Source: Prochlorococcus sp. AG-363-G03 (GTDB lineage Bacteria > Cyanobacteriota > Cyanobacteriia > PCC-6307 > Cyanobiaceae). From it: DNA of 34,747 bases. The notes beneath the pieces are model-generated. The model had not been told where the DNA came from. It saw only the letters and a list, made by a program, of their open reading frames with translations, and made no database searches. The position numbers and the translations under genes are program-made. The stretch spans positions 1-34,747 of the forward strand of contig QCFJ01000013.1 in the NCBI GenBank assembly GCA_003280265.1. Direction: 5' to 3'. This document shows, in pieces, positions 1,774 through 15,744 of this stretch (positions within the stretch are counted from its first letter, which is position 1; each line of letters starts with the position of its first letter).

Positions 1774-2109
1774 ATGTCAGAGACCAAAGCCCTAAACGTA
1801 CTACTTGCACCAGAGGGGCAATTGCAGGGCAATGGACAACTAAGAGAATCTTTTCATGAGAGAAGGGATCGCAAAGGATCTGATTATCCTATGTGGTTTT
1901 TAAATTCATCATTGGTTATTAAATTTAATATCTCAGACAAAGAAGGATATGAGGCTGTTGTTGCAGAAGAATCATCAACAATAGCTTGGCTAAAGCTTCG
2001 TTTTGGTGGAGAGAAGTTCACAAAAACACTTGATACTGAAGAGCTTTGGGAATATGCAAGCTTGCCACCTGAACCACCAGAAATAAAAGACATATCGACA
2101 CAAGAGTAA
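1774..2109 (+). CDS. Conserved-type hypothetical protein (111 aa)
   Basis: A soluble 111-residue protein with no signal peptide, membrane segment or metal-binding motif that I can recognise. It contains charged and proline-rich stretches (LPPEPPEIKD near the end). It ends 8 bases before the ferredoxin-like gene at 2118 on the same strand, so the two are probably cotranscribed and translationally close. That linkage is the only functional hint, perhaps a role beside the ferredoxin. I do not recognise the family. Confidence 0.7.
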   Translation: MSETKALNVLLAPEGQLQGNGQLRESFHERRDRKGSDYPMWFLNSSLVIKFNISDKEGYEAVVAEESSTIAWLKLRFGGEKFTKTLDTEELWEYASLPPEPPEIKDISTQE

Positions 2110-2117
2110 ATATTTTT

Positions 2118-2504
2118 ATGAAACCAATTCACAAAATAACAATTCACCATAAGCAAGAAGGTAAAACATATACCTTTGAGGTTCCAGAAGGACAATATAT
2201 TTTGAGAAATTTCGAGTCAAAAGATGAAAATGGTCAAATAATCGGTGATAAACTCCCATTCTCATGCCGAAACGGTTGTTGCTCAGAATGCGCAGTTAAA
2301 ATAATTTCAGGTAAAATGGATCAAAAAGCTTGCATTGGATTGTCAAAAGAGCTACGAGAGAAGGGATTTGGATTATTATGCGTTTCCAAAGCAATAGGTC
2401 CATTGGAATGCGAAACTCAAGAAGAGGACGAAGTTTATAACGCTCAATTTGGTAAATACTTCAAAGGATTGGATACACAAGCAGGAAATCCCTTTGATAT
2501 TTAA
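2118..2504 (+). CDS. C-terminally extended plant-type [2Fe-2S] ferredoxin (FdC2-like)
   Basis: The protein is a plant-type ferredoxin, a soluble electron carrier. The cluster ligands are C50, C55 and C58 (SCRNGCCSEC, the C-x4-C-x2-C pattern) and C88 (GLLCVS). After the ferredoxin fold comes an extra tail of about 30 residues that ordinary photosynthetic ferredoxins (about 97 aa) lack; this is typical of the FdC group of plants and cyanobacteria. The gene directly follows a small hypothetical gene and faces acsF with only 15 bases between the stop codons. Work on plant FdC2 links it to the Mg-protoporphyrin monomethyl ester cyclase step, so the adjacency is suggestive, but a role as electron donor to AcsF here is inference. 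Confidence 0.88.
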   Translation: MKPIHKITIHHKQEGKTYTFEVPEGQYILRNFESKDENGQIIGDKLPFSCRNGCCSECAVKIISGKMDQKACIGLSKELREKGFGLLCVSKAIGPLECETQEEDEVYNAQFGKYFKGLDTQAGNPFDI

Positions 2505-2519
2505 ATTCCCAAAAAAATC

Positions 2520-3281
2520 TTATTTATCAGTCCAGAAATTCAAAATATCACCACCAGTAAATTGAACATCCTTGTCATATCTCAATGCATTAGTTTTTTC
2601 CATCGGCAATGCAAATTGCTTAAAAATTAAAGATACAAATTTCATTAACTTAACTGGCTTTGTTAATCCTTTTGTCGACACAAATGCCCTAAAAGATTCA
2701 ATAATTTTGTTTCTCAAGTCCCAAAACTTGTCGTCTTCAAGATTAAATACCCAAGGGAAAGCATTCTTAGACGTGTGATTTGTTCTTCTGATAACTTCCT
2801 CATCAAATTCTTTAGGCTCAATACCCAATAATTCATAAAATTCTCCTCTCTCGCAAACTGTCAAAGTATGAGTTAGAAATACACTCCAAAGGAAAAAACG
2901 ACTTAACAACTTGCCTCTCCAACCTTTAGTAATTCCAGGCCAACACCTCATCATTACAGTAAAACAGTCTCCATGCCTGTTCTCGTCTTGACACCATGGT
3001 TCGAAGAAGTCAAACAAAGGAGCAAAGGCTTCTCCTGGATTAGCTTTAAGGTGCCTATCCATCAAGATATATCTCCAATAACCAATTTTTTCTGACAGGT
3101 ATACAGAATAAATAACCCAACTTATTGGGAACCAAGTTGCTGCTCTTTTCCCACCTAAATGAGGTAGATCAACCTCAATCCCCTCAGCGACAAGAGCTCT
3201 ACTGAGAAATCCTGCATGCCTAGCTTCATCTCTGGCTAAAAACTGAAATAGTTTTCCAAGATCTCTATTTCCTTCTTTCAT
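2520..3281 (-). pseudogene. acsF: acsF, C-terminal part (Mg-protoporphyrin IX monomethyl ester cyclase), cut off from its N-terminus
   Basis: This 253-codon frame carries most of AcsF, the aerobic cyclase that makes ring E of chlorophyll using a di-iron centre. The ligand motifs DEARH (near residue 19) and DENRH (near 102) are present, as is SEKIGYWR between them. The ATG at 3279-3281 is probably only fortuitous: the true gene should run on from the N-terminal frame (3265-3549), which overlaps it by 17 bases in another phase. About 25 residues usual in the family, including the E-F-S-G-F-L-L segment with the first di-iron glutamate, are missing at the junction. As it stands the fragment could not form a complete di-iron site. 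It faces the extended ferredoxin gene. A real mutation and an assembly error are both possible. Confidence 0.85.
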
Positions 3282-3549
3282 AGACCTCTTTTGACTTCTG
3301 AGGTAATTCTTGCAGCCTATCTAAACTTGCTTTTCTATCGAAATGAGTGCAATTATAATCAGCCTTCATCTCTGAAAGCATCGCTTCAAACTCTTCTCTA
3401 GCATCAGTTAATTCTGTCTTGGCAGCTTTCTTAAATTCGGTTACATAAAAACGAGGTGTTAAAAGGTTCTCATCTAAATGCGGCGGCAACTCGTTAGTTC
3501 CGCGTGTATCAACTCTTAGTTTTGGGGAAGAAGAAGCTGTAGCGGTCAT
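3265..3549 (-). pseudogene. acsF: acsF, N-terminal part, ending in a frameshift
   Basis: The first 94 codons match the start of cyanobacterial AcsF: a leader (MTATASSS), then NELPPHLDENLLTPRFY and ADYNCTHFDRKASLDRL. Homology continues through KSKEVYE, after which three foreign codons and a TAG at 3265-3267 follow. The downstream frame resumes one base out of phase at KEGNRDLGK, which normally lies about 25 residues further on. The deletion is therefore of a length not divisible by three, with a short shared A-rich stretch (GAAA/AAAG) at the join, compatible with slippage. The start ATG at 3549 fits the family N-terminus. Ring-E closure is essential for divinyl-chlorophyll synthesis, so a functional second copy elsewhere, or a sequence error here, is expected. 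Confidence 0.82.
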
Positions 3550-9822: not shown

Positions 9823-10629
9823 AATTCTATTTTTTATGCTTAATAAGAAAATATTATTAAAGTGAAGTAAACCGAAGATTGTAGTTATAGCTTAATTCTT
9901 GTTTATAGTCCAAACACACTCGAGCATACTTTCAAACACACTTTTTATAACTTAAGGACCTTCGGTCTACGAACTCGAAGGCCTAAAAGCTAAAAAGCCA
10001 ACGCTTATTAACGAATATACTAATTGAAATTTACAGATAGCGTTTCAGATAGAATTGACTAGATTAACTAGCAAGAACAGAGTTGAAATACATAGATATA
10101 ATACAGAACTATTATCATGATTTACGGATTTTCATTAAAAGCAAATTAAAATCATCAAGGAATCAAATATAAAGAAAAGTAATAAGTCATACAGAAGTGT
10201 TAAATAAAATATCATGAAATAATTACCTGCCAAAAAATACTATTAAGGCAGGCAACTCTTTTAAAACAAAGGGATATGACTTATCTTTTTATTGGCTGTA
10301 AATACAATTAAAAAGATAAAAAAAATATCTAATTAAAAATTTTAAAAATTTTTATTAATCGTTTATTAAGACATTTTATGATTTCGTGAAAATAAATTAG
10401 ACAAGATTTGAAAAATGATTCTTATAATTTTCAATAGATTATTAGATAAAATTTTTTATTTTTTAATTTTAGAATCAAAAATTATTCTTCTTAATAAACT
10501 ATAAATAATATATATTCAATGACAGGATTATATATATATTTATTTTTGATAAATTTATATATAAAGTTAACAATCAATCAGAAAAAGAACTTACTATAAT
10601 ATAAATAAGTCTAAACCCAAGCTAAATGT
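9823..10629. other. About 800-base AT-rich gap without a credible gene
   Basis: Both strands are full of stop codons and I find no protein gene here. Structures seen: a region at 9957-9981 where the segment CCTTCG (9959-9964) can pair with CGAAGG (9976-9981) or, alternatively, GACC (9957-9960) with GGTC (9964-9967); a 6-bp hairpin CCTGCC/GGCAGG at 10226-10231 and 10247-10252; and long runs of A and T around 10330-10560. A small RNA could be hidden here, but no known family is recognisable. The stretch follows a tRNA and precedes accessory-looking genes, which fits a former insertion site, although no integrase or repeated tRNA end is visible. Confidence 0.6.
10595..10600 (+). promoter_or_regulatory. 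Possible -10 box upstream of the 56-aa ORF
   Basis: A perfect TATAAT lies 29 bases before the ATG at 10630. No convincing -35 hexamer stands at the usual distance; a TTAACA is present but too far upstream. In such AT-rich DNA a chance match is quite likely. Confidence 0.25.
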
Positions 10630-11307: not shown

Positions 11308-12642
11308 ATGAAAGAAGAAAAAGGAAAAGATAATAATTCATTTGAATATGAGACTAATAATCTCATTAGATCTAGTTTGAATGAGCAAGAAAATGTTAAT
11401 GAATTAGAAAATATTGCTTCAAAACCTTCCAATCAATTAACGAATGGGCTTTTAGGTTGGTATTCAGTATCTAGTAGCAAGTCGATAAAAGATGGAAAAT
11501 TAAATCACTTCACGATTTATAACGAGCCACTCGTTTTGTATCGTGATAGAGAGGGTATTGTCAGATGTGTAAAGGATGTATGCCCTCACAGAGGAGCTTC
11601 TTTTTTAGGCGGTGAAGTTATAAACGGTCAACTTGTATGCCCTTATCATGGTGCTAGATTCTCATCTCAAGGGAGTTGTACAAATTTAGACAGAATAACT
11701 TGTCAGCATATTATTGATTCTAATTATGATAACTATGCCAAAAGCATAAAACTTTTTCAATATCCTTGTGTAGAAAAAGAAGGCTATATCTACATTTATT
11801 ATTCTGGAACACCACTTGCAAACATTGAAGACTTCGAAATAAAATATTCAATAAATAGCTTACTTCCTGATTCTTATGGATTTCCTTCTTTGGAATATGA
11901 ATATGAAGAGGTATATGTAGATTTTAAAGCGGATTGGGCTAGAATTATTGAGAATCACTTAGATATATTACATGTATTCTGGATGCACGGAGACACAATC
12001 CCCGACAAAAATGTAAACAGAAATACTATAACAAGTTTTAATCAAAAAATTAAACGAGATAATAGGCAAATAGAAAGTATCTATTCATATAAAACAAACG
12101 GTAAAGAAGAATTTATAAGAATAAAGTTTGTGCCTCCAGGGAGAATTTTTATATATAAGGGCTCACCAGAAAGCACAAGATATATTCAAGTTCTTGATCA
12201 TATTCCTCTAGGAAACAATAAAGCGAGAGTGATAGTTAGACATTACAGGAAATTTTTAAAAAACAAATTATTCACAAACTTAGTTTTATTTAGCAATCTA
12301 CAAAGAAGGACATTTTATAAGATTTTTTCAGAAGATTATCTAGTATTGAAAACCCAAACTTTTAATGAGCAAATGGGTTATATACAAAAAGATAATGTTA
12401 AGTTATTAGGTGAAGATAAGATGGTTCAATATTACTGGGATTGGCTACAAAATGCATTAAACAAGGAAAAGCCATGGGATTTACATCCAACTAATTCATT
12501 AACTAATTCAGTCCATGAAGACAGAGGCATGCTATATCCACCAGAAAATCCTAATATGGCTATAAAGAATAATAGAAAAATAATTATCAAGCTTTTAACT
12601 AGATTATTATTCCCAATAAGTTTTATACTGTTATTCATTTAA
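11308..12642 (+). CDS. Rieske non-haem iron oxygenase (PaO/Lls1/Tic55-like)
   Basis: The 444-residue protein is a Rieske-type oxygenase. The [2Fe-2S] ligands are C92-P-H94 (CPHRGASFLGG) and C111-P-Y-H114 (CPYHGARF). The mononuclear iron site is N216/D219/H222/H227 in ENHLDILHVFWMH. The C-terminus ends in a hydrophobic helix (KLLTRLLFPISFILLFI), which suggests membrane anchoring as in the pheophorbide a oxygenase / Lls1 / Tic55 group of cyanobacteria and plastids. Chlorophyll-type or other lipophilic substrates are typical of that group, but the substrate here is not known. The first 45 residues are polar and probably disordered. The gene is followed after 33 bases by an ABC ATPase on the same strand, perhaps one operon. 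Confidence 0.9.
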   Translation: MKEEKGKDNNSFEYETNNLIRSSLNEQENVNELENIASKPSNQLTNGLLGWYSVSSSKSIKDGKLNHFTIYNEPLVLYRDREGIVRCVKDVCPHRGASFLGGEVINGQLVCPYHGARFSSQGSCTNLDRITCQHIIDSNYDNYAKSIKLFQYPCVEKEGYIYIYYSGTPLANIEDFEIKYSINSLLPDSYGFPSLEYEYEEVYVDFKADWARIIENHLDILHVFWMHGDTIPDKNVNRNTITSFNQKIKRDNRQIESIYSYKTNGKEEFIRIKFVPPGRIFIYKGSPESTRYIQVLDHIPLGNNKARVIVRHYRKFLKNKLFTNLVLFSNLQRRTFYKIFSEDYLVLKTQTFNEQMGYIQKDNVKLLGEDKMVQYYWDWLQNALNKEKPWDLHPTNSLTNSVHEDRGMLYPPENPNMAIKNNRKIIIKLLTRLLFPISFILLFI

Positions 12643-14685: not shown

Positions 14686-15744
14686 GTGCAGACCTACGGG
14701 AATCCTAGCGTTACCTATGACTGGTACGCGGGTAATTCAGGGACGGCCAATCGCTCCGGAAAATTCATCGCTGCGCATGCTGCCCATGCTGGTTTGATGA
14801 TGTTCTGGGCAGGTGCGTTCACTTTATTTGAGCTAGCTCGTTATGACTCATCCGTCGCGATGGGTAATCAAAACTTGATTTGCTTGCCTCACCTTGCACA
14901 ACTTGGAATAGGTGGAATCGAAAACGGAGTAATAACTGAGCCTTATGGTTGCACAGTTATTGCTGTACTTCACCTAATTTTCTCTGGTGTTCTTGGTGCT
15001 GGTGGAATTCTTCACTCAACAAGATATGACGGTGATTTAGGAAATTATCCTGAAGGAAGTCGTCCTAAAAAGTTTGACTTCGAGTGGGATGATCCAGACA
15101 AACTTACATTTATTCTTGGTCACCACCTTATTTTCCTAGGTTTGGCAAACATTCAATTCGTTGAATGGGCTCAATATCATGGTATTTGGGATACTGCTTT
15201 AGGAGCTACTCGTACAGTTTCTTACAACCTAGATTTAGGTATGATTTGGAATCACCAAGCTGATTTCCTTCAAATCAATAGTCTAGAAGATGTTATGGGT
15301 GGCCATGCTTTCCTAGCATTTTTCCAAATAATTGGTGGTGCATTCCACATCATCACTAAGCAATTTGGTGAGTACACAGAATTCAAAGGTAAAGGACTTC
15401 TTTCAGCAGAAGCGGTTCTTTCTTACTCACTAGCTGGAGTTGGCTACTGTGCTCTTGTTGCAGCTTTCTGGAGTTCAACAAACACTACAGTTTATTCAAC
15501 AGAATTTTTTGGAGATGTACTTCAACTGAAGTTTGATTTCGCACCTTATTTTGTTGACACCGACGCATCACTTGCAACTGGGGCTCATACAGCAAGAGCT
15601 TGGTTGGCAAACGTTCACTTCTATCTTGGCTTCTTCTTCATACAGGGTCATCTCTGGCATGCATTAAGAGCTATGGGATTTGACTTCAGACGTGTTGGTA
15701 AAGCGTTCGACAATATGGAAAACGCAAAAATCACTAATGGTTAA
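14686..15744 (+). CDS. pcb: Divinyl-chlorophyll a/b-binding light-harvesting protein Pcb
   Basis: Pcb is the membrane antenna of Prochlorococcus, related to CP43 and IsiA, binding divinyl chlorophyll a and b around the photosystems. The 352 residues begin QTYGNPSVTYDWYAGNSG and contain six hydrophobic helices with conserved His and Gln ligands (AAHAAHAG, HHLIFLGLANIQFVEWAQYH, NHQADFLQINSLEDVMGGHAF, HFYLGFFFIQGHLWHALRAMGFDFRR). There is no large loop like that of CP43, as expected for Pcb. The start is GTG at 14686, the only position that gives the conserved N-terminus. I see no Shine-Dalgarno sequence. The gene is monocistronic, with a strong terminator. Which pcb paralogue it is cannot be read directly; its place beside ferritin and an iron-type ATPase suggests an iron-responsive copy. 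Confidence 0.96.
   Translation: MQTYGNPSVTYDWYAGNSGTANRSGKFIAAHAAHAGLMMFWAGAFTLFELARYDSSVAMGNQNLICLPHLAQLGIGGIENGVITEPYGCTVIAVLHLIFSGVLGAGGILHSTRYDGDLGNYPEGSRPKKFDFEWDDPDKLTFILGHHLIFLGLANIQFVEWAQYHGIWDTALGATRTVSYNLDLGMIWNHQADFLQINSLEDVMGGHAFLAFFQIIGGAFHIITKQFGEYTEFKGKGLLSAEAVLSYSLAGVGYCALVAAFWSSTNTTVYSTEFFGDVLQLKFDFAPYFVDTDASLATGAHTARAWLANVHFYLGFFFIQGHLWHALRAMGFDFRRVGKAFDNMENAKITNG

What the first reader, a model, noticed from the sequence alone, without database searches (positions are those of the whole stretch)
2520..3549. acsF, needed for chlorophyll ring E, is split by a deletion plus frameshift
The N-terminal frame (3265-3549) and the C-terminal frame (2520-3281) are both clearly AcsF and sit in different phases, with about 25 family-typical residues missing where they meet, including the first di-iron glutamate segment (EFSGFLL). 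In a chlorophyll-dependent phototroph this should be lethal unless there is another copy or an alternative cyclase. The join shows short A-rich microhomology (GAAA / AAAG), as in slippage deletion. It is either a striking natural loss in this lineage or an assembly or single-cell artefact.
Basis: partly seen in the sequence, partly recalled or inferred. Interest (0 to 1): 0.75.

Follow-up and report, generated by a model that had tools for sequence, protein, structure and literature searches.

The report
Broken acsF is probably an artefact
A chlorophyll-synthesis gene looks broken in one incomplete Prochlorococcus genome, but the break most likely arose while that genome was copied or assembled; the more interesting thing beside it is an unrecognised relative of the enzyme's helper protein Ycf54.

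Summary
acsF (minus strand, 3549-2520) lacks 77 bp relative to 29 of 29 intact relatives compared. As 77 = 3x25+2, one deletion makes both the gap and the frameshift, and the first di-iron glutamate segment is lost.

I judge it an amplification or assembly artefact (0.85), not a natural loss. G000 looks like a single-amplified genome: 57% complete, 61 contigs, shortest 2,094 bp. acsF is found in 34 of 40 other genus members, always full length; the junction is in 1 of 41. Both fragments evolve as functional sequence (omega about 0.03, as in intact pairs). No second acsF or true BchE was found. One other frame break turned up among 260 genes. Reads were not available.

Off target but firmer: ORF 1774-2109, two genes from acsF, is a divergent Ycf54. 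A sequence profile and a predicted fold each rank the five solved Ycf54 entries first. In 21 of 21 near-complete genomes whose only AcsF is the window's type, canonical Ycf54 is undetected and this variant sits within 0.7 kb of acsF.

The parts
3265..3549 (-). N-terminal fragment of acsF (94 aa; last residues out of frame)
2520..3281 (-). C-terminal fragment of acsF (253 aa); its ATG is made by the join; keeps DEARH and DENRH
3275..3279 (-). junction, GAAAG, where 77 bp present in relatives are absent
2118..2504 (+). [2Fe-2S] plant-type ferredoxin (128 aa) with about 20 residues beyond the core; convergent neighbour of acsF, kept in 61 of 62 loci L031-L092
1774..2109 (+). divergent Ycf54-like protein (111 aa), next to the ferredoxin; linked to this AcsF type

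Best explanation
The split acsF is an error product, not biology. The sampled cell most likely carried an intact type-II acsF (inferred). During whole-genome amplification by a phi29-type polymerase, or during assembly, 77 bp between two short A-rich repeats were skipped (inferred), and the product became the assembled sequence because a single-cell amplification starts from one or two template molecules. Shown: the deletion, its private occurrence, the functional-type evolution of both fragments, and the intact homologue elsewhere. Inferred: that G000 is a single-amplified genome and that the skip happened in vitro.
For: G000 is 56.93% complete, 1.21 Mb in 61 contigs, 0.54% contamination. Its shortest contig is 2,094 bp, fitting the 2,000-bp cut of the Prochlorococcus single-cell set PMC6122165 (passages), and its closest acsF relatives are single-cell genomes of that set (AG-311, AG-402). 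That workflow's benchmark is 1.5 misassemblies and 3.0 indels per 100 kbp, i.e. about 0.5 and 1.0 expected in this 34.7-kb window. acsF is detected in 34 of 40 other genus genomes, all with 369-389 aa open frames and no stops. The junction (up to 3 mismatches) is in 1 of 41. Omega of window against intact relatives has median 0.030, versus 0.028 for 385 intact pairs; 2 private amino acids against 11 private synonymous codons. A second frame break, a 4-bp deletion in an rsmD-like gene (name recalled) on contig C9, is in the same assembly. Cyanobacteria of that set were sorted by pigment autofluorescence, so such a cell held chlorophyll.
Against: No reads were seen, and the single-cell origin is inferred. 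In one MDA study direct-orientation joins under 10 kb were only 11 of 475 chimeras (PMC1855051 passages), so a 77-bp direct deletion is not the typical chimera. P. marinus single-cell assemblies had the fewest misassemblies and indels among the benchmark strains (PMC5519541 passages). The assembly is fairly clean: acsF and one other gene broken among 260 compared, and acsF alone among 39 matched ORFs in the window. No strong hairpin at the site (DNA-fold z -1.9, -1.4, -1.0 and +1.0). ChlG and ChlL (only a 23-bit hit) are also not found in G000, which incompleteness explains but does not prove.
Confidence: 0.85

Rival explanations
1. Genuine, very recent deletion by replication slippage in the sampled cell or its near ancestors; the cell lived on inherited chlorophyll or on a second, intact chromosome copy.
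For: Short direct repeats at the join fit replication slippage. Lack of sequence decay cannot exclude a loss only generations old.
Against: Private to one incomplete genome. No other cyclase: one acsF and no BchE over cut-off in 41 genomes (G000 47.8 bits, cut-off 481.35). A lethal mutation caught in a random cell is a priori far rarer than published assembly error rates. The pcb antenna gene in the same window is intact, 99.7% identical to G034.
Confidence: 0.08
2. Stable natural loss of acsF in a lineage, with chlorophyll made by a cyclase missing from the 43% not assembled.
For: G000 is only 57% complete, so a second gene could be unseen.
Against: Near-complete genus genomes have exactly one acsF match each and none has BchE over cut-off. 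Selection on both fragments looks unrelaxed. In PMC4500134 (passages; table header not seen) BchE is stated for only two Cyanothece species.
Confidence: 0.03
3. Functional split enzyme: the two overlapping ORFs make two chains that assemble.
For: The C piece begins with an ATG preceded by AGAGG, and the two ORFs overlap by 17 nt.
Against: The published di-iron signature E-xn-ExxH-xn-E-xn-ExxH (PMC7319587 passage) loses its first glutamate with the deletion, and the first 22 or so positions of the Rubrerythrin profile are gone. No relative has the split.
Confidence: 0.02

Closest known systems
[quoted passage not shown]
   Same: Both fragments match AcsF models; the intact relative scores over the cut-off of both; single copy per genus genome.
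   Different: 77 bp missing, frame broken, first glutamate segment lost.
Ycf54 (PF10674), auxiliary subunit of the cyclase in oxygenic phototrophs
   Different: The window protein itself has no Pfam match at E<=1 and about 20% identity to solved Ycf54; F13, D39 and F40 fall on Q16, P39 and M40; encoded beside acsF and co-distributed with type-II AcsF only.
FdC2 / VirK, C-type ferredoxin that donates electrons to barley cyclase (PMC8408499, passages)
   Same: The ferredoxin beside acsF also extends beyond the plant-type core (core match 6-107 of 128).
   Different: Orthology to FdC2 was not tested.

Membership tests
AcsF (TIGR02029 / NF010172) | full-length match over the curated cut-off | tested here: not met
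   Neither piece covers the model: C piece profile 101-301 of 337 and 116-350 of 361, N piece 8-62 and 8-90. The C piece passes the TIGR02029 cut-off alone (240.6 against 192.5) but not NF010172 (313.7 against 391). The intact relative L031 passes both.
AcsF (TIGR02029 / NF010172) | complete di-iron motif E-xn-ExxH-xn-E-xn-ExxH | tested here: not met
   The first E segment (EFSGFLL of relatives) lies in the 77-bp gap; EARH and ENRH are present. Motif from PMC7319587 passage.
Ycf54 (ORF 1774-2109) | sequence homology to Ycf54 | tested here: met
   Profile A1 to PDB Ycf54 E 8.7e-5; hhalign probability 85.5, E 5.7e-6 over 69 columns; A1 hits canonical Ycf54 genes in 11 genomes. But 21 of 37 members hit PF10674 only at E<=1 (best 5.4e-4), and the window member does not.
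Ycf54 (ORF 1774-2109) | Ycf54 fold | tested here: met
Ycf54 (ORF 1774-2109) | seven conserved residues A9 F13 E22 E26 D39 F40 R82 (PMC5317394 passages) | tested here: inconclusive
   4 of 7 kept, 3 not, by hand mapping on the alignment with a chain offset of 3 that I inferred.
Ycf54 (ORF 1774-2109) | required for or bound to the cyclase | not testable with these tools
   Needs pull-down or knock-out.
FdC2 ferredoxin (ORF 2118-2504) | FdC2 clade with C-terminal extension | tested here: inconclusive
   Extension seen; no tree with FdC2 references was made.
BchE anaerobic cyclase as backup | TIGR02026 over its cut-off | tested here: not met
   0 of 41 genus genomes; G000 47.8 bits against 481.35; control genomes ring equally weakly, 11 of 14.

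The most novel reading that the evidence does not exclude
Type-II AcsF cyclases of picocyanobacteria have their own auxiliary subunit, a divergent Ycf54 encoded beside them. Low-light Prochlorococcus has lost the AcsF-I/Ycf54 pair and makes all its chlorophyll with AcsF-II, this Ycf54 variant and probably the adjacent ferredoxin: a compact acsF-ferredoxin-ycf54-like module that has gone unrecognised because the helper falls below family cut-offs.
Probability: 0.7. Interest if true: 0.5.

Novelty: not a real feature. Interest (0 to 1): 0.22.

Why it matters
Read as biology, a Prochlorococcus without its only cyclase would overturn an essential step of chlorophyll synthesis; read as an artefact it is a reminder that single-cell assemblies carry private frame breaks in essential genes. 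The neighbourhood matters more. Ycf54 is described as an auxiliary subunit required by the cyclase of oxygenic phototrophs (PMC13297055 passage), yet low-light Prochlorococcus has no detectable canonical copy; the divergent, acsF-linked homologue found here would fill that gap and gives a natural partner-swap system for testing what Ycf54 does.

Tried and rejected
Second acsF copy: one place in G000; the TIGR02029 model gives two matches, both pieces of this gene. BchE: none over cut-off. Phage origin of the locus: no match in 50,697 phage records. Hairpin-driven deletion: weak folds only. Inverted-repeat chimera signs in the window: 26 short imperfect pairs, the 25 shown 18-37 nt long, nothing decisive. 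Direct PDB search for AcsF ligands: only weak Symerythrin hits, E 0.05. A near-complete relative (G085) that seemed to lack acsF: its gene is cut by a contig end, as in G354, so no natural loss there. 246 of 251 near-complete family genomes matched; I did not resolve all five misses. In the 260-gene comparison 8 rows were flagged: acsF and the rsmD-like gene are real breaks. Of the other six, three have stops only upstream of the likely start, one a stop in the last residues, one lacks only its first 38 residues (all), and one is a second, similar gene beside the first, judged from coordinates. Canonical-Ycf54 alignment A2 held two rows on the wrong strand and was discarded for A3. Foldseek against PDB could not be run, machine busy; the VIA-align second look was used (repeated reading).

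Full report
What is there. On the minus strand, ORFs 3549-3265 and 3281-2520 are the two ends of one acsF gene in different frames. Its nearest acsF relatives are Prochlorococcus single-cell genomes AG-311 and AG-402 at 94-96% amino-acid identity. The window is collinear with closed relative G034.

The lesion. Compared with L032 the gene lacks 77 bp, and the anchor spacing is the same in 29 of 29 relatives. 77 is 25 codons plus 2, so a single deletion removes about 25 residues and shifts the frame. The join is GAAAG; 4 of 29 relatives carry GAAAG at both ends of the stretch and 22 of 29 carry GAGAG on the left. The stretch holds the EFSGFLL segment. The published di-iron signature is E-xn-ExxH-xn-E-xn-ExxH (PMC7319587, passage), so the first glutamate goes. 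The C piece has an ATG created by the join with AGAGG before it, but the protein would lack the first helix of the bundle; I take it as dead.

Who else has it. The junction with up to 3 mismatches occurs in 1 of 41 genus genomes, G000 itself. In the same 41, 34 of the 40 others give an AcsF match, all with open frames of 369-389 aa and no stops. The six without a match are 54-76% complete, and in one of them (G354) the gene is cut by a contig end 11 nt before the deletion point. Contig ends inside acsF also occur in G085; by a rough estimate of mine that is no more than chance. No genus genome has a second acsF or BchE over its cut-off.

Old or new. Over 337 codons the window against 29 relatives has omega with median 0.030 (lowest 0.021); 385 intact pairs (those with dS over 0.2, of 406) have median 0.028 and range 0.003-0.069. 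The window has 2 private amino-acid states and 11 private synonymous codons, a functional pattern. The gene was under purifying selection until at most very recently.

How dirty is the assembly. I compared 375 kb of G000 (window included) with ORFs of at least 80 aa from 1.28 Mb of G034: 260 of 1,152 had a homologue of at least 60% identity, and two of these are truly broken: acsF and an rsmD-like gene (name recalled) on C9 with a 4-bp deletion. Within the window 39 of 40 reference ORFs matched and only acsF is broken. The published benchmark of the single-cell workflow used for the relatives is 1.5 misassemblies and 3.0 indels per 100 kbp (PMC6122165, passages), so a lesion of this kind is expected somewhere. 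G000's shortest contig, 2,094 bp, fits that workflow's 2,000-bp cut. Against this: typical MDA chimeras are inversions, direct joins under 10 kb being 11 of 475 (PMC1855051, passages), and P. marinus assemblies were the cleanest of the benchmark strains (PMC5519541, passages), although the same passage notes slightly more deletions in WGA-X reads. In the published set, cyanobacteria were sorted on pigment autofluorescence (PMC6122165 section 6). I also note that ChlG is not found in G000 (not checked in relatives) and ChlL only as a 23-bit hit, while ChlL is over cut-off in 30 of 41 genus genomes; at 57% completeness I do not read this as pathway loss. The pcb antenna gene 14686-15744 is intact.

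Verdict on the finding. Artefact of amplification or assembly, 0.85; genuine fresh deletion in that cell, 0.08; stable loss with an unseen substitute, 0.03; working split enzyme, 0.02.

Co-distribution. In 121 family genomes (G000 plus 120 at least 95% complete) canonical Ycf54 is over cut-off in 96. A1 matches 63: 11 of these are canonical Ycf54 genes, which is itself evidence of homology, and 52 are the variant. The 52 are G000, 21 genomes whose only AcsF match is the window's type (one match, E<=1e-117) and 30 genomes with two AcsF matches. In the 21, canonical Ycf54 over cut-off is 0 of 21, the variant 21 of 21, always within 0.7 kb of acsF (my reading of coordinates). In the 30, the variant lies within 3 kb of the type-II AcsF in 19, 4-12 kb in 4, on another contig in 2, and in 5 the AcsF place was not listed. 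Not every genome with two AcsF has the variant at this limit (for example G064, G094, G113, G130, G134). The genomes are related, so 21 of 21 is not 21 independent events. That low-light strains have ChlAII and no ChlAI appears in table rows of PMC4500134 (I did not see the table header, and the text of the review calls ChlAI ubiquitous). I found no paper naming a Ycf54 variant in low-light Prochlorococcus in searches (listings; passages of four of the papers listed there).

Barley VirK (FdC2), a C-type ferredoxin, donates electrons to the cyclase in vitro (PMC8408499, passages). The ferredoxin beside acsF also has a C-terminal extension (core match ends at 107 of 128), so the three genes may encode catalytic subunit, electron donor and helper. 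That last step is inference.

Noticed in passing
window 1774-2109 (+): 111-aa ORF is a divergent Ycf54 homologue linked to type-II acsF; canonical Ycf54 is not detected in the genus.
   Followed up: yes
window 2118-2504 (+): Ferredoxin with C-terminal extension between acsF and the Ycf54-like gene in 61 of 62 loci L031-L092; possibly FdC2-type, the cyclase electron donor.
   Followed up: partly
G000 contig C9, about 1,000-1,630 (L135): rsmD-like methyltransferase gene (name recalled) with a 4-bp deletion near its 3' end, the only other frame break among 260 genes compared.
   Followed up: partly
window 9823-10590: A 348-aa reference ORF of G034 has no counterpart here; looks like ordinary gene-content difference.
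   Followed up: no
L225 (G354:C41 end) and L226 (G085:C10 end): Contigs of two other genomes end inside acsF, one 11 nt before the deletion point of G000; probably chance.
   Followed up: partly
window 11308-12642 (+): Rieske-type oxygenase (PF00355, PF19112) near the pcb antenna gene; a pigment-modifying role is possible but untested.
   Followed up: no
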